The position numbers and the translations under genes are program-made. Positions 48,321 to 55,377 of a stretch of 64,000 bases of DNA are shown piece after piece. The notes beneath the pieces are model-generated. The model did not search any database, was not told the origin of the DNA, and saw only the letters and a program-made list of their open reading frames with translations. The DNA comes from Leptospirillum ferrooxidans C2-3 (lineage in GTDB: Bacteria > Nitrospirota > Leptospirillia > Leptospirillales > Leptospirillaceae). Each line of letters begins with the position of its first letter. The stretch's first letter is position 1. The DNA lies in assembly GCF_000284315.1 (NCBI RefSeq), contig NC_017094.1:62001-126000 (forward strand). Reading direction: 5' to 3'.

Positions 48321-48479
48321 CGGTTCTTGTTCCCGGAAGTTTTCCTGTTGTTTATGTTTTCCCTGTGATAGAATTCATCCTCATTCCTGACATTTCTATT
48401 GTTTTCCCGGAAGGATTCAGGCAGCCTGCTGGCCGCTTCCATTCTGGATGTTTCCCGGTCTTCGGGCAGAAAGGGGAGT

Positions 48480-49526
48480 ATGGTTTTGGAGCCGACCTTT
48501 TCCACCCTTTATGATAAATGGGAAGCCATCTCCGCTGAAGGAAGATGGGAAGAAGCCCTTTCGTTTTGTGATGAGCTTTTTGTATCCGCAAGGCAGTCCC
48601 AGCGACCCACCTTTTATTTGAAAGCCAAAAAAGCTCGTGGCATCAGTTCGTTCTGGTGTGGTCATTTCCAGACGGCCCAGCAGGATTTGAGGGAAAGCAT
48701 CGATCTTCCTTCCAATCATAATGAACCGACCCATTCTATTGGTGGTTCGGCGACGCTTTCAGTCTGTCAGGCCTATCTCTCCCTTCTTCTTGCCATCTTT
48801 CTCGAATCAAAAGAGGCTTTTGACTTTCATCACAGCTCACCTGATCTGGCCAGACTCTCCGAAAATCCGCTGATCATGGCTCAGGTGATGGCGGCAGAGA
48901 GCTTTTTTCACCGGCTCCGCCGGGAGATTGCTCCAACCTTGCGCCATGCTAATCTTCTGAAGGATCACTGCCGTGCACATGGCCTCCGTTTTTGGTATTC
49001 CCAGGCGGGTATCCTTTCCGGGTGGGCGAAATGCCTTTCCGGTGAAAAGGAGGAGGGGATGAAGGAGATGGACCGCCACCTTTCGGAGCTTTCCGGAGGC
49101 AACTTTGATGTTTTGGCTCTTTTGTCCGTTTCAGAGGGATTTCAGATGATGAGAGACGCGGATCAGGCCATCGCATTTCTTGAGCGGGCCCTTTCCCGCT
49201 CTTCGGAGACGGGAGACCGGGCCCTTTTATCGGAAATGTGGAGAGTCATGGCGGAACTTCTCTCCATGAAAGAGCGTCCGGAGGGGGAGATTCTCCAGTC
49301 ATTCGAAAGAGCTATTTCCATTGCCGGGGAAAATCCTTCTCCTCTTTTTTTGGTCAGGGCCACACTCTCTCTCGACCGTTGGGAAAAAAGTCGGGGTGGT
49401 TCGAACCCATTGACGGGGATGAGTCTTGCCCGACTTGATTCCCTTTATCGCGACAAGCTTCCCGAGCATGATCTCTCCGCCATGGATTTTGCGATCTCTC
49501 CTGACAGTCGTGAAAATAAATTATAG
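48480..49526 (+). CDS. TPR-like helical repeat protein of unknown function
   Basis: 348 residues from the ATG at 48480 (AAGGGGAG close upstream; the frame is open to a TTG at 48399 that has no site). No signal peptide. Series of helix pairs with TPR-like spacing (GRWEEALSFCDELF, GHFQTAQQDLRESI, RDADQAIAFLERALSRS, GEILQSFERAISIAGE), similar to the TPR part of large ATP-binding regulators, but here without any enzymatic domain. Function unknown; likely a protein-protein scaffold. It precedes the helicase operon by 71 bases. Confidence 0.6.
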   Translation: MVLEPTFSTLYDKWEAISAEGRWEEALSFCDELFVSARQSQRPTFYLKAKKARGISSFWCGHFQTAQQDLRESIDLPSNHNEPTHSIGGSATLSVCQAYLSLLLAIFLESKEAFDFHHSSPDLARLSENPLIMAQVMAAESFFHRLRREIAPTLRHANLLKDHCRAHGLRFWYSQAGILSGWAKCLSGEKEEGMKEMDRHLSELSGGNFDVLALLSVSEGFQMMRDADQAIAFLERALSRSSETGDRALLSEMWRVMAELLSMKERPEGEILQSFERAISIAGENPSPLFLVRATLSLDRWEKSRGGSNPLTGMSLARLDSLYRDKLPEHDLSAMDFAISPDSRENKL

Positions 49527-49597: not shown

Positions 49598-52500
49598 ATG
49601 ACTGGAGAACCATTGGAACCTCTCGCCTATGGGCTTTACGAGGCACTTCTTGATGAGAGACTGAAAGAAATTTTCCGTCTTCACCCTGATCTTCACCCGG
49701 TTTTTGGAAAAGTCGATCCCGAAGAAGAACCATCGCGCTATGTTTCATTCGTTTCTCAAGTCCTCAATCAGGCTTTACAGGAATCCCCGCCAGAAAAACG
49801 GATACGTCTGGTGAATCATCTTCTGGAACAAATTGTTCTTGATGGTGGTCTTGATGATTTCAGGGACAAGCGGCTGGTCCCTGATGAAAAAAGCCTTCTT
49901 CTCGAAGTCACCCCGCCCCACTATTCGGGAAGGACCGGTCTTCCCCGTCCCCAAACCCCCCTTGCGAAAAGCTCTCTTTTTACGGGTTCTCCGTCTGAAC
50001 CCCAGCTTGCCCATGAGTTGCTGGAGGAAATGTACTCGGCTGATCGGGTGGATATTCTGGTATCGTTCATCAAATGGTCCGGACTGAGACTATTGATGGA
50101 AGGTTTTGAGGATCTCTTGAAAAACAGGGTCCCTGTTCGCTTCATTACAACCTCCTATATGGGGGCTTCCGATCCGCCGGCTGTTGAATGGCTTTCTCGC
50201 CTGCCAAATGTTGAGATACGGGTTTCCTATGACACCCAGCGGACCCGCCTTCATGCCAAGGCCTATCTTTTCCACCGCCTGTCGGGATTCTCCACCGCAT
50301 ATATCGGTTCCTCGAACATGTCCCATCCGGCAATGAGCAGCGGTCTTGAGTGGAATCTGAAAGTGACAGCCCAGGATATGGGACATATCCTGGAGAAGTT
50401 TCGTGTGGAATTTGAGACTTACTGGAACAGTAAAGAGTTTGTCCCTTTCGGTCGTGATCAGAATGAAACATTCAGAAAAGCCATCTTACAGGCGAGAAAA
50501 CCCGACAAACATCGGGAGGCTTTTTTCTTCGATTTGCGGCCGCATCCTTTTCAGGAAAGGATTCTGGAAGCTCTTGACCGTGATCGCCTTGTTCATGGAC
50601 GGAAGAGAAATCTGGTGGTTGCTGCGACAGGGACCGGAAAAACCGTTGTGGCCGCCTTTGATTTCAGGCGGTTCCATGAGCGGAAAAATCGACAGGCCAG
50701 ACTTCTGTTTGTTGCGCACAGGGTGGAAATTCTTGAACAGGCACTGGCCACATTCCGAAATGTCCTTCGGGATCATACTTTTGGCGAAATCCTTGGAGGG
50801 GGTTACGAACCCTCACGTCTGGATCATCTTTTTTGCTCAGTGGGAATGTTGTCTTCCCGGAGGCTCTGGGATCGACTCAAAAGCGATTTTTACGACTTCA
50901 TCGTGGTTGATGAAGTCCATCATGGTCCTGCGGGAAGTTATCGACCTCTCTTTGAGCACTTTTCTCCGGAAGTCCTTCTGGGGCTTACCGCGACTCCGGA
51001 AAGAATGGATGGGGAAAGTGTCGCTTCCGATTTCGGCAATCGGTTTTCCGCAGAGATACGGTTGCCCGAAGCGCTGGAAGAAAAGCTTCTTTGTCCGTTT
51101 CAATACTTTGGAGTGGCAGACCCTGTTGCATTGTCAGAGGACCGTTTCTGGAAAAATGGGCGGTTTGATGTTTCCGCACTGGAAAATGTTTACACCGGTG
51201 ATGATGTTTTGGCGAAAAACCGGCTGGAAGTGATCCTGTCCTCACTCGATCGATATCTTCCGGACCGATCTTCTCTTAAGGGAATCGGTTTTTGCGCCAG
51301 CCAGAAGCATGCGAGATATATGGCTGAGCAGTTTAATCGTCGAGGCATCTTGTCGAATGTCATCTTGTCGGATGTCAATAATCCTGAATGTCGCAATCGT
51401 CTGGATGATCTGTCTTCGGGGAAACTGACGTTTCTTTTCACTGTGGACAAGCTGAGTGAGGGAATCGATTTGCCATCGGTGAATGCTGTTCTTTTTCTCC
51501 GTCCCACAGAGAGTCTGACGGTGTTTCTGCAGCAGTTGGGGCGTGGCTTGCGCCATGCCCCGGAAAAAGACTGTCTCACTGTCCTGGACTTTGTTGGTCA
51601 GGTTCATCGGAGATACCGGATCGATACCAAACTGAAGGCCCTTCTTCCTCACCATCGCTATTCGATTGAACGGGAAGTTCTGGAGGATTTTCCCCATCTT
51701 CCCCCTGGTTGCTCGATCCGCCTTGACCGGATTGCCCGGAAGCAAGTTCTTGAAAATATCCGTGAGAACCTGAAAAACTTGTCGGTGGTCATTCCAGAGC
51801 GACTGGAAACCTTCGAGTCTGAAACGGGTCGCCCTCTCACTTTTGGAAATTTTGTCACGTACCACGATATCGAGCCGGACATTCTCCTGTCCTCCAGAAG
51901 CTGGAGTGAGTGGAAATCAAGGGCTCGTCTTGCGTTGGTGCCAAAAGATCCGGATCTCACCCTTCTTCGGGAATCACTGATTCATGCCTCTTTCATGAAT
52001 GATCCGGAGGAAATTCGGGTGATGAAAAAAACCATCACCTGTCTTCAGCAAAAAGATATTCAGCAGGCGCTCTCCATTTCGGGAAACTGGGGAGCACCGA
52101 TCCATCGGAGACTTTGGCGGAAAAAAGGCAGCCTTCTCAAGATGGCTTCCCTGGAGGATTCTTTCGGGCGTCTTTGCAGGAATCCTTCCATTCTTTTTGA
52201 TCTTCAGGAGATTTTGGACTGGGCGCTGGAGAACAGTGATGCAAGTCCGAGTGTTCCGGAGCTTCCTTTCAGGACATCGCTTCGTCTTCACGGGCGCTAT
52301 GGAAATGAAGACCTGCAGGGGGTCCTTGGCCACTTTTCCATTGAAACTCCGGGGCTACGGGGTGTTGGAGTCATTCCCTTCAAACAGATCAAAACCTATG
52401 CGCTTCTTGTCACCTTTGGAAAAACGGAAAAGGACTTTTCCCCGACAACAATGTATGCGGATTACCCGATTAACCAGAGCCTCCTTCACTGGGAGTCCCA

Positions 52501-52741
52501 GTCCGATACGAAAGCTTTATCCGAAAAAGGACAAAATCTGATCGAACACAAGAAGCGGGGATACACGATCCTTGTTTTTGCCCGCGATGTGAAGAAAAGG
52601 AATCAGCATACAGTGCCCTTCACCTATCTTGGTCCGGTCGAATGCGAGAGCCATGAAGGGGAGAGGCCCATCCGGATGATATGGAGGTTGCTCTACCCGA
52701 TGCCTGCTGACATGTTTGAAAACAACAGGCGGGGCGGATGA
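49598..52741 (+). CDS. PLD nuclease, SF2 helicase and DUF3427 multidomain protein
   Basis: 1047 residues. Residues about 135-285 form a phospholipase D-type nuclease domain with an HKD-like motif HAKAYLF (219-225) and GSSNMS (237-242). A superfamily 2 helicase core follows: Walker A ATGTGKT (343-349), DEVHH (438-442), TATPER (464-469) and motif VI QQLGRGLRH. The rest (about 700-1047) matches the DUF3427 type C-terminal domain with unknown role. The protein would translocate on DNA and cut it. The stop overlaps the start of a UDG-fold gene by 4 bases. Family members are known as DNA repair or defence-like enzymes, but function here is not established. Confidence 0.85.
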   Translation: MTGEPLEPLAYGLYEALLDERLKEIFRLHPDLHPVFGKVDPEEEPSRYVSFVSQVLNQALQESPPEKRIRLVNHLLEQIVLDGGLDDFRDKRLVPDEKSLLLEVTPPHYSGRTGLPRPQTPLAKSSLFTGSPSEPQLAHELLEEMYSADRVDILVSFIKWSGLRLLMEGFEDLLKNRVPVRFITTSYMGASDPPAVEWLSRLPNVEIRVSYDTQRTRLHAKAYLFHRLSGFSTAYIGSSNMSHPAMSSGLEWNLKVTAQDMGHILEKFRVEFETYWNSKEFVPFGRDQNETFRKAILQARKPDKHREAFFFDLRPHPFQERILEALDRDRLVHGRKRNLVVAATGTGKTVVAAFDFRRFHERKNRQARLLFVAHRVEILEQALATFRNVLRDHTFGEILGGGYEPSRLDHLFCSVGMLSSRRLWDRLKSDFYDFIVVDEVHHGPAGSYRPLFEHFSPEVLLGLTATPERMDGESVASDFGNRFSAEIRLPEALEEKLLCPFQYFGVADPVALSEDRFWKNGRFDVSALENVYTGDDVLAKNRLEVILSSLDRYLPDRSSLKGIGFCASQKHARYMAEQFNRRGILSNVILSDVNNPECRNRLDDLSSGKLTFLFTVDKLSEGIDLPSVNAVLFLRPTESLTVFLQQLGRGLRHAPEKDCLTVLDFVGQVHRRYRIDTKLKALLPHHRYSIEREVLEDFPHLPPGCSIRLDRIARKQVLENIRENLKNLSVVIPERLETFESETGRPLTFGNFVTYHDIEPDILLSSRSWSEWKSRARLALVPKDPDLTLLRESLIHASFMNDPEEIRVMKKTITCLQQKDIQQALSISGNWGAPIHRRLWRKKGSLLKMASLEDSFGRLCRNPSILFDLQEILDWALENSDASPSVPELPFRTSLRLHGRYGNEDLQGVLGHFSIETPGLRGVGVIPFKQIKTYALLVTFGKTEKDFSPTTMYADYPINQSLLHWESQSDTKALSEKGQNLIEHKKRGYTILVFARDVKKRNQHTVPFTYLGPVECESHEGERPIRMIWRLLYPMPADMFENNRRGG

Positions 52742-53478
52742 TGCTCATTCTGGAAAATGTGATCCAAAAAAGGGTCCATAAAGAGAGGGCACCCTCATAT
52801 CCGTCTCTCTCTTCCCTCCTGGAGGCGGTTCGAGGCTGTCGGGCCTGTGAATCCTCTTTGCCGATGGGCCCCAGACCCGTTCTGGCCTGCGATGAGCGTT
52901 CGAGAGTCCTGATTGTGGGGCAGGCACCTGGTCTCCGCGTTCATGAAACCGGTATCCCCTGGAATGATCGGAGCGGGGAGCGTCTGAGAGAGTGGATGGG
53001 GATTGACCGGGAGACTTTTTATGACGCGTCGCGTATTGCAATCATTCCAATGGGGTATTGCTATCCTGGCAAGGGGGAGCGGGGTGACCTGCCTCCCAGA
53101 ACAGAATGCGCATCCATGTGGCTTGGGGAACTTTTAAAGTGGCTTCCCCGGATTGAACTTTGTCTTCTTCTCGGTCTTTATTCCCAGCGATATTTCCTGG
53201 GAGATGGCCTGTCCTTGACGGACAGGGTTTTCTCATGGCGTTCCTACCCTTCCGGAGTCATTCCCCTTCCTCATCCATCACCAAGGAATGCCCTCTGGTT
53301 CAAGAAGAATGAGTGGTTTTCCAAAGAACTTCTCCCGGATCTCAGGTTGAGGGTGGGGAAAGCTCTTTCGGCATGTGACGAAAAGCCACTCATTGGCGAT
53401 CCGGCAGAAGAGAGTTTACCCAAACTCCCTAAACGCATTGGTCGCAAGAAAAATCCACCGCATGATCTCGCTGGATGA
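52738..53478 (+). CDS. Uracil-DNA-glycosylase-fold protein
   Basis: 246 residues. Motif 1 is ILIVGQAPGLRVHETGIPW-like (sequence RVLIVGQAPGLRVHETG), and motif 2 is LPHPSPRNALW, matching HPSP of UDG-superfamily enzymes. The N-terminal part has a Cys pair (GCRACESSLPMGPRPV) as in family 4/5-like UDGs, though the full set of iron-sulfur Cys is not obvious. It probably removes uracil or another damaged base, or binds such a base. It overlaps the helicase gene by 4 bases, so both are made from one message. The last about 30 residues are Lys/Pro-rich. Confidence 0.8.
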   Translation: MMLILENVIQKRVHKERAPSYPSLSSLLEAVRGCRACESSLPMGPRPVLACDERSRVLIVGQAPGLRVHETGIPWNDRSGERLREWMGIDRETFYDASRIAIIPMGYCYPGKGERGDLPPRTECASMWLGELLKWLPRIELCLLLGLYSQRYFLGDGLSLTDRVFSWRSYPSGVIPLPHPSPRNALWFKKNEWFSKELLPDLRLRVGKALSACDEKPLIGDPAEESLPKLPKRIGRKKNPPHDLAG

Positions 53479-53634: not shown

Positions 53635-55377
53635 TTGGCTCAGGTTGTCGTTCAAGATAAGGGAGATCTGAAAGCACTTCGCCACAGTGCTGCCCATACA
53701 TTGGCCCAGGCGGTGAAGCGTCTTTTTCCGGAAGCCAGGGTTGGTGTCGGTCCCGCTACGGATGATGGCTTTTATTATGACTTCCATTATTCCCGTCCTT
53801 TTACTCCCGAGGATCTTGTCCGGATAGAGGACGAGATGCGGAAGATCATCTCTCAGGGGCTTGTGATTGAGCGAAGACCGGTTTCCAGGGAAGAGGCAGT
53901 AGCCCTTTTTTCCGGGATGGATGAGCCATTCAAGCTTGAATTGATTTCTTCGATTCCGGACGAGGCAGAAATAACGGTTTACGAGCAGGGGGAGTTTGTC
54001 GATCTCTGCAGGGGCCCTCATGTGGCCGGGACCGGTGATATTCCTGCCATCAAGCTACTCACCACATCCGGAGCCTACTGGAAAGGGATCGAGTCAAACC
54101 CGTCCCTTCAGCGGATCTATGGGACAGCTTTCTGGTCAGAGGCCGATCTTGCCGCACATCTTCTGAAGCTTGAGGAGATTCGCCGGAGGGACCACAGGAA
54201 GCTTGGCCGGGAACTGGACCTTTTCCGGACCCTGGATGAAAAAGGGGCTGGTCTGGTCCTGTGGCTACCAAGGGGGAGCCGGGTCCGTCGCATCCTTGAG
54301 GATCTCTGGAAGTCCCTCCATGACCGCCACGGCTACAAGTATGTCTACTCTCCGCATATTGCGAGACTCGACCTCTGGAAGCAGTCCGGTCATTGGGATT
54401 ATTATCGGGACAGCATGTTCTCTCCGATGGAAATCGAAGGGGTGGAATATGAGCTGAAGCCGATGAACTGTCCCTTTCATATCATGATTTTCCGTGAGAG
54501 CGTGAAGAGCTATCGGGATCTTCCCATTCGCTTGTCCGAGCTTGGAACTGTCTATCGATACGAGCGTTCGGGCACACTCCATGGCCTGATGAGGGTTCGG
54601 GGCTTTACCCAGGATGATGCCCATCTTTTCTGCAGGCCGGAGGACTTGGCGTCAGAAATCGAGAAGGTCCTTGTATTGGTGGACGAAATGATCGGCCGTT
54701 TCGGTTTTACCGACCGGACGGTCTATCTGTCCACCCGGCCGGAGAAATCGGTCGGTTCTGACGAGCATTGGAAGATGGCGACGGATGCCCTTGAAAGTGC
54801 TCTGATCAAATCGGGGATTCCGTATCAGACTGATCCTGGGGAAGGCGTTTTCTATGGCCCCAAGATCGACATCAAGTTCCATGATGCGATCGGCCGTTCC
54901 TGGCAGCTTTCGACCGTTCAGGTGGATTTCAATCTTCCTGAAAAATTTGATCTGTCCTTCCGCAATACACAAGGGGAGGCAGAGAGGCCGATCATGATCC
55001 ATCGGGCCCTGTTTGGTTCGATCGAGAGGTTTTTCGGTATCCTCGTCGAGCACTATGTCGGAGCCTTTCCTTTGTGGCTCGCGCCAGAACAGGTGATGAT
55101 CATGACAATAGCGGATCGGCATATTCCGGATGCGGAGGCTCTTCTTGAGCGCTTGAAATCAAGCGGTATCCGTGCGGAAGGAGACTTCCGGAATGAGAAG
55201 ATCGGTTTCAAGATTCGGGAAGCACAGATGCTCAAGGTTCCGGAGATGTGGATAATAGGGGATCGGGAAGTTGCTGAAGGGCGGGTTTCCATTCGAACCC
55301 GCGAAGGTGAAAAGACAGACCTCGTTCTTCGGGATGAGGCGATCAGCTCCCTGATTGAAAGGGCCAGACCGGCCTGA
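53635..55377 (+). CDS. thrS: Threonyl-tRNA synthetase lacking the TGS domain
   Basis: 580 residues. Start is the TTG at 53635; the codon before it is a stop, so no longer protein is possible. The editing domain begins at once with HSAAHTLAQA (His17, His21) and CRGPHVAGTG; the class II core shows MNCPFHIMIF (zinc Cys), RYERSGTLHGLMRVRGF (motif 2) and the anticodon-binding domain starts near FPLWLAPEQV. Common bacterial ThrRS is about 640 residues with an N-terminal TGS domain of about 60 residues, which is absent here. First gene of the operon. Confidence 0.93.
   Translation: MAQVVVQDKGDLKALRHSAAHTLAQAVKRLFPEARVGVGPATDDGFYYDFHYSRPFTPEDLVRIEDEMRKIISQGLVIERRPVSREEAVALFSGMDEPFKLELISSIPDEAEITVYEQGEFVDLCRGPHVAGTGDIPAIKLLTTSGAYWKGIESNPSLQRIYGTAFWSEADLAAHLLKLEEIRRRDHRKLGRELDLFRTLDEKGAGLVLWLPRGSRVRRILEDLWKSLHDRHGYKYVYSPHIARLDLWKQSGHWDYYRDSMFSPMEIEGVEYELKPMNCPFHIMIFRESVKSYRDLPIRLSELGTVYRYERSGTLHGLMRVRGFTQDDAHLFCRPEDLASEIEKVLVLVDEMIGRFGFTDRTVYLSTRPEKSVGSDEHWKMATDALESALIKSGIPYQTDPGEGVFYGPKIDIKFHDAIGRSWQLSTVQVDFNLPEKFDLSFRNTQGEAERPIMIHRALFGSIERFFGILVEHYVGAFPLWLAPEQVMIMTIADRHIPDAEALLERLKSSGIRAEGDFRNEKIGFKIREAQMLKVPEMWIIGDREVAEGRVSIRTREGEKTDLVLRDEAISSLIERARPA

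What the first reader, a model, noticed from the sequence alone, without database searches (positions are those of the whole stretch)
49598..53478. Two-gene operon: PLD nuclease/SF2 helicase/DUF3427 plus a UDG-fold protein
One 1047-residue protein unites a PLD-type nuclease motif (HAKAYLF and GSSNMS), a complete SF2 helicase and a DUF3427-like C terminus. Its stop overlaps by 4 bases the start of a UDG-superfamily protein with GQAPG and HPSPRN motifs. A nuclease-helicase fused in one chain and translationally coupled to a base-recognition fold is the layout expected of a DNA-modification-sensing defence module (recognise uracil or a modified base, then load the cutter) or a dedicated repair pathway. 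A TPR-like protein of unknown function sits directly upstream. The coupling is seen; the pathway is inference.
Basis: partly seen in the sequence, partly recalled or inferred. Interest (0 to 1): 0.65.

Follow-up and report, generated by a model that had tools for sequence, protein, structure and literature searches.

The report
SauUSI-like restriction enzyme plus neighbouring UDG-like gene
The large gene encodes a single-chain enzyme of a known kind that finds and shreds foreign DNA carrying methylated or hydroxymethylated cytosine, and the UDG-like gene behind it is a widespread repair-type gene that joined it in this species only, so the pair is not a conserved defence module.

Summary
The two open frames, their motifs and the 4-base ATGA overlap are real. 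[quoted passage not shown] A family profile aligns end to end with SauUSI (7clg, E=3e-136). The nuclease His (H119 in SauUSI, H219 here) is conserved. The C-terminal DUF3427 region folds like SauUSI's SRA domain, a 5mC/5hmC reader, so the enzyme carries its own recognition domain and needs no UDG-fold partner. The host genome has no C5-cytosine methyltransferase, as such an enzyme would require.

The pairing is not conserved. None of 79 other UDG-like loci has the helicase within the fetched flanks. Nine other Nitrospirota genomes with the helicase lack the UDG homologue. A same-genus genome has the TPR and helicase genes followed directly by thrS. The locus lies among thiamine-synthesis and tRNA-synthetase genes, not in a defence island.

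Unexpected lead: five of the seven nearest helicase relatives (62-64% identical, five genera) have a NudG/MutT-like Nudix hydrolase gene overlapping the helicase start by 1-4 bases, suggesting a nucleotide-pool "self-protection" partner, for which the UDG could be an unproven analogue.

The parts
49598..52741 (+). [quoted passage not shown] H219, K221, S238, N240), SF2 ATPase (~314-670), coupler and SRA-like reader (~690-1047, DUF3427)
   Evidence: Pfam; PADLOC mREase_IV; profile to 7clg E=3.1e-136 over 137-1016; fold of residues 777-1047 matches 7clg, SUVH6, MspJI
51926..52741 (+). C-terminal coupler plus SRA-like modified-cytosine reader (residues 777-1047)
   Evidence: AlphaFold model pLDDT 88; Foldseek top hits SauUSI 7clg E=7.6e-7, SUVH6 6a5n E=2.9e-4, then KRYPTONITE, MspJI, AbaSI, UHRF1 SRA
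52738..53478 (+). UDG-superfamily protein of the 3IKB-like subfamily, motif A GQAPG, motif B HPSPRN, four invariant Cys (C34, C37, C108, C124) spaced as in [4Fe-4S] UDGs; probably a passenger gene in this species
   Evidence: Pfam UDG E=1.8e-25; PDB 3ikb E=4.7e-50 and family-4 1ui0 E=6e-8; alignment A2
52738..52741 (+). ATGA stop/start overlap of the two genes
   Evidence: sequence
48399..49526 (+). TPR-like protein, Leptospirillum-specific neighbour; present with the helicase in same-genus G071
   Evidence: Pfam; 84% identical in G071, no clear counterpart in other genera of the family
53635..55377 (+). thrS (threonyl-tRNA synthetase), conserved flanking gene; its promoter region marks the downstream boundary

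Best explanation
The large gene is a SauUSI-like single-polypeptide type IV restriction enzyme. Its C-terminal SRA-like domain flips out and reads 5-methyl- or 5-hydroxymethyl-cytosine in incoming DNA. Recognition switches on the SF2 motor, and translocating dimers shred the DNA with their paired PLD nuclease sites. The UDG-like gene encodes a separate base-excision-type glycosylase of a widespread housekeeping-like family. It sits downstream by a lineage-specific gain and is probably co-translated, but is not part of the restriction mechanism. Shown here: homology, conserved catalytic residues, reader fold, absence of host C5-cytosine methyltransferases, non-conservation of the pair. Inferred from SauUSI: substrate and ATP-driven shredding. 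Inferred: the independent role of the UDG.
For: PADLOC mREase_IV E=2.1e-185 over residues 117-1040. Nine-sequence profile aligns 137-1016 with SauUSI 38-917 in one stretch, E=3.1e-136; SauUSI H119 (H119A is used in place of the wild type to prevent cleavage, PMC7913695) equals H219 here. The C-terminal model matches 7clg first, then SRA readers SUVH6, KRYPTONITE, MspJI, AbaSI, UHRF1. SauUSI's TRD is an SRA fold that recognises S5mCNGS. No PF00145 C5-methyltransferase in the 2.56 Mb complete host genome. UDG pairing absent elsewhere: 0 of 79 UDG-homologue loci; nine other Nitrospirota genomes with the helicase have no UDG homologue; congener G071 has the helicase then thrS, with homology resuming just after the UDG; UDG-bearing genomes carry the helicase family at 5/50, not significantly above 17/369 (Fisher p=0.16), and on other contigs. 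The host has a separate canonical family-4 UDG.
Against: The 4-base ATGA overlap and same orientation imply co-expression, which a pure passenger need not have. The UDG may have been lost from G071 rather than gained here; with one informative congener this cannot be decided. The window protein shares only modest identity with SauUSI, so its exact modification and sequence specificity are untested. It has an extra N-terminal ~100 residues relative to SauUSI.
Confidence: 0.78

Rival explanations
1. The UDG-like protein is a host-protection partner. By removing stray 5-modified or deaminated pyrimidines from host DNA it prevents self-attack by the modification-dependent nuclease, as a Nudix hydrolase may do at the nucleotide-pool level in related loci.
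For: ATGA coupling. In five of the seven nearest helicase relatives a NudG/MutT-like Nudix gene overlaps the helicase start by 1-4 nt; E. coli NudG hydrolyses 5-methyl-dCTP (PMC3744803). In G071, which lacks the UDG at this site, the helicase frame carries an in-frame TAG.
Against: One species only. The glycosylase substrate is unknown, and excising modified C from host DNA would itself be costly. G071's stop could be an assembly error and leaves a 946-aa frame with all known domains. Two of seven near relatives (G008, G042) have neither partner visible beside the gene.
Confidence: 0.12
2. Two-enzyme anti-phage module: the UDG-fold protein excises a modified base (Brig-like) that the nuclease cannot read, the nuclease takes 5mC/5hmC DNA, and together they broaden restriction of phages with modified cytosine.
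For: UDG-superfamily proteins Brig1 and Brig3 defend against T-even phages by excising glucosyl-5hmC or 5hmC (PMC11078745, PMC13160076). SauUSI cuts 5mC and 5hmC but not glucosylated DNA (PMC3874153).
Against: The window UDG belongs to a chromosomal subfamily whose sampled loci show genus-specific ordinary neighbours, in Microbulbifer directly upstream of canonical ung. No PADLOC hit and no phage homologue. The locus is not in a defence island. The pair is not conserved.
Confidence: 0.06
3. One reading: the UDG fold is the recognition subunit that loads the PLD/helicase cutter.
For: Only the coupling.
Against: The cutter has its own SRA reader, and the helicase occurs without the UDG in the other Nitrospirota genomes.
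Confidence: 0.02

Closest known systems
SauUSI (Staphylococcus aureus type IV restriction enzyme, PDB 7clg; PMC7913695, PMC3874153)
   Same: Order PLD nuclease - SF2 ATPase - coupler - SRA reader (DUF3427); catalytic HxK...N; single polypeptide; profile alignment end to end.
   Different: About 100 extra N-terminal residues; modest identity; a different clade (PADLOC model PDLC03659 scores far above PDLC03658); activity untested.
3IKB-like UDG-superfamily proteins (PDB 3ikb, uncharacterised; annotated 'uracil-DNA glycosylase family protein')
   Same: Same subfamily by sequence, E=4.7e-50; GQAPG and HPSPRN motifs.
   Different: The window protein and its relatives in alignment A2 keep four Cys of the [4Fe-4S] type, two of which (C108, C124) align with Tyr and Phe in 3ikb; the window copy has a C-terminal tail of about 35 residues.
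Brig1 / Brig3 anti-phage glycosylases (PMC11078745, PMC13160076)
   Same: UDG superfamily; Brig3 is in an operon with a second DNA-modification enzyme.
   Different: No defence-island context, no phage-related distribution; direct sequence comparison was not made.
E. coli NudG / MutT Nudix hydrolases (PDB 2rrk, 1mut)
   Same: Known relatives of the Nudix proteins coupled to the helicase in five related genomes.
   Different: Below the NCBIfam equivalog cut-offs, so substrate is not assigned; not present beside the helicase in the window.

Membership tests
SauUSI-like type IV restriction enzymes | PLD nuclease domain with HxK and downstream N/S catalytic residues | tested here: met
   PLDc_2 at 150-276; H219, K221, GSSN 237-240 aligned with SauUSI H119 and GSSN 136-139
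SauUSI-like type IV restriction enzymes | SF2 helicase-like ATPase in the same chain | tested here: met
   ResIII and Helicase_C hits; Walker A from 343, DEVH from 438
SauUSI-like type IV restriction enzymes | C-terminal SRA-fold target recognition domain | tested here: met
   Profile alignment extends to SauUSI residue 917; Foldseek top hits SauUSI and SRA readers
SauUSI-like type IV restriction enzymes | Host DNA free of the target modification (no cognate C5-methyltransferase) | tested here: met
   No PF00145 match in the complete host genome; the same search found it in 10 of 14 control genomes
SauUSI-like type IV restriction enzymes | ATP-dependent cleavage of m5C/hm5C DNA only | not testable with these tools
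   needs enzyme assay
Family 4 uracil-DNA glycosylase (UdgA) | Motif A GE(A/G)PG and motif B HPAAVL (PMC10359453) | tested here: not met
   GQAPG and HPSPRN; NCBIfam UDG_fam4 18.6 bits against cut-off 125.3
Family 4 uracil-DNA glycosylase (UdgA) | Four cysteines for a [4Fe-4S] cluster | tested here: met
   C34, C37, C108, C124 invariant in 21 sequences; the cluster itself not tested
Family 3 SMUG | Motif A GMNPG and motif B HPSPRN (PMC10359453) | tested here: not met
   motif B identical, motif A GQAPG
Brig-type anti-phage glycosylase | Location in anti-phage defence islands | tested here: not met
   window flanks are thiG, thiE, thiD-like, thrS, pheT/pheS-like and ABC transporter genes; PADLOC hits there only to ABC-type ATPases; homologues sit among ordinary genes
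Brig-type anti-phage glycosylase | Excision of 5hmC or glucosyl-5hmC | not testable with these tools
   needs glycosylase assay

The most novel reading that the evidence does not exclude
SauUSI-like enzymes of this clade are coupled to enzymes that clear modified pyrimidines from the host: a NudG/MutT-like Nudix hydrolase acting on 5-modified dCTP in five genera, and a UDG-like glycosylase acting on DNA in Leptospirillum. That would make type IV restriction with dedicated self-protection by nucleotide or base hygiene, in a class of systems that has no methyltransferase to protect the host.
Probability: 0.12. Interest if true: 0.62.

Novelty: new member of a known kind. Interest (0 to 1): 0.33.

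Why it matters
It turns a guessed two-gene sensing module into an identified type IV restriction enzyme in an acidophilic iron oxidiser, which predicts that dcm-methylated plasmids will transform this species poorly. The recurrent Nudix coupling in relatives raises a testable question: how hosts of modification-dependent nucleases avoid self-damage when modified dCTP enters their own DNA.

Tried and rejected
UDG as reader subunit: rejected because the SRA domain is built in and the UDG is absent elsewhere. Defence island around the locus: PADLOC found only hits to ABC-transporter ATPases. Brig membership: no supporting context; direct sequence comparison not made because only accessions were available. 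G078 as a second independent genome with the pair: its contig is 99-100% identical to the window and the bin holds two thrS copies (100% and 78%), so it is most likely a Leptospirillum contig binned with another genus. Full-length AlphaFold model: mean pLDDT 66 with 9 sequences, not used; replaced by the C-terminal model. MazG-like N-terminal domain in the SauUSI paralogues of L052 and L060: suggested by eye, not detected by Pfam. Shared gene neighbours of the UDG family: conserved only within genera. UDG tree: the window sequence groups weakly with Burkholderiaceae (support 84/55), compatible with horizontal gain but not proof.

Full report
What is there. The two ORFs stand at the stated coordinates: 49598-52741 (1047 aa) and 52738-53478 (246 aa), overlapping by ATGA. 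The genome is one 2,559,538-base contig. The nearest named record is a Leptospirillum metagenome contig. Size and GC fit Leptospirillum ferrooxidans, an identification that rests on my own knowledge.

The large protein is a SauUSI-like enzyme. PADLOC names it mREase_IV with E=2.1e-185 over residues 117-1040. A single-sequence search finds SauUSI (7clg) over residues 138-767. A profile of nine homologues aligns 137-1016 with SauUSI 38-917 in one stretch, E=3.1e-136. That stretch includes most of SauUSI's target recognition domain, residues 806-953, which has the SRA fold and reads S5mCNGS (PMC7913695). The SauUSI nuclease residue H119 corresponds to H219. A model of residues 777-1047 built on 19 homologues has mean pLDDT 88. 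Its best structural matches are the two SauUSI chains (E=7.6e-7 and 9.3e-6) and then SRA 5mC readers SUVH6, KRYPTONITE, MspJI, AbaSI and UHRF1. TM-scores are modest (0.54 to SauUSI, query-normalised), so the fold assignment rests on the profile and the structural search together. The layout PLD-helicase-DUF3427 is therefore a known one, and DUF3427 was already proposed as the modified-DNA reader (PMC3874153; PMC7159879).

The host fits. A modification-dependent enzyme needs a host without the cognate mark. The complete genome has no C5-cytosine methyltransferase (PF00145), while 10 of 14 control genomes do.

The small protein. It belongs to a UDG subfamily whose only close solved member is the uncharacterised 3IKB (E=4.7e-50). 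Motif A is GQAPG, motif B HPSPRN, and four cysteines (34, 37, 108, 124) are invariant in 21 sequences, spaced as in iron-sulphur UDGs. It fits no numbered family by its motifs. The host also has a canonical family-4 UDG with GEGPG at 1578791-1579240, so the window copy is not its only UDG.

The pair is not conserved. In 118 Nitrospirota genomes the UDG homologue occurs only in the window genome, a near-identical contig in G078, and three genomes without the helicase family. Nine other genomes in that set with the helicase family (G008, G028, G037, G041, G042, G048, G071, G086, G094) lack it. In same-genus G071 the order is M23-thiD-TPR-helicase-thrS. DNA homology with the window stops at the helicase stop (52741) and resumes at about 53488. 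G071 is a 72% complete metagenome bin, but the contig spans this interval. In another genus of the family (G010) M23-thiD-thrS are contiguous, and in G037 a GGDEF-EAL gene sits at that site, so this is a variable interval. From the UDG side, 0 of 79 homologous loci, mostly with 6 kb flanks, contain the helicase. Of 50 of these genomes 5 carry the helicase family, on other contigs, against 17 of 369 in a gammaproteobacterial sample (Fisher p=0.16; the two searches used different E-value limits, but all five pass the stricter one). No phage record matches the UDG.

Context. Neighbours in the window are thiG, thiE, an M23 peptidase, a thiD-like kinase, thrS, pheT/pheS-like genes and ABC transporter genes, with no defence genes. 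Homologues of the UDG sit among ordinary genes conserved within genera, in Microbulbifer directly upstream of canonical ung. Some helicase homologues do lie near defence genes: a phosphorothioate-type HNH restriction enzyme and type I-like genes in G048, SIR2 and SLATT genes in Pseudoalteromonas.

A lead worth more than the original one. In five of the seven nearest helicase relatives (62-64% identity: G644, G811, G763, G048, G041; five genera in four families) a Nudix hydrolase gene directly precedes the helicase and overlaps it by 1-4 bases. The other four Nudix proteins are 57-62% identical to the G811 one, so the coupling is old. Their known relatives include NudG and MutT. NudG hydrolyses 5-methyl-dCTP (kcat/Km 3e5 per M per s, cited in PMC3744803). 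G008 and G042 lack it at the locus. None of the more distant helicase homologues with visible flanks has it. The window genome has only a 37% identical Nudix elsewhere. My literature searches returned no paper linking Nudix with SauUSI-like enzymes, but the library is partial.

Verdict. The claimed partnership is not supported as a conserved module. The most likely role of the UDG is independent base excision repair. A host-protection role by analogy with the Nudix partners is possible but weakly supported.

Noticed in passing
L174:3984-4388, L175:4626-5030, L176:4626-5039, L047:8622-9035, L050:16751-17197: NudG/MutT-like Nudix hydrolase gene overlapping the start of the SauUSI-like gene by 1-4 nt in five Nitrospirota genera.
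   Followed up: partly
L046:12640-12651 (G071 helicase): In-frame TAG near residue 110 of the same-genus helicase, leaving a 946-aa frame that still holds PLD, helicase and DUF3427; pseudogene, shorter start or assembly error.
   Followed up: no
L052:6612-12661: Two SauUSI-like genes in tandem in G086, the first with an unusual N-terminal region (IREKLVRDGIPE...) that resembles MazG/PRA-PH-type pyrophosphohydrolases by eye but gives no Pfam hit.
   Followed up: partly
L150, L160-L163: SauUSI-clade genes in Gammaproteobacteria fused to or directly preceded by what looks like a class I SAM-methyltransferase domain (motif DAGCGxGR).
   Followed up: no
L047:7633-8625: HNH protein close to the phosphorothioated-DNA restriction endonuclease family (NF045808, 155.8 bits, below the 180 cut-off) immediately upstream of the Nudix and SauUSI-like genes in G048.
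   Followed up: no
window 48399-49526: TPR-like gene conserved with the helicase in two Leptospirillum genomes, without clear homologues in other genera of the family; function unknown.
   Followed up: partly
L054 / G078:C174: Contig near-identical to the window in a genome assigned to another genus that has two different thrS genes; probably a mixed bin.
   Followed up: partly
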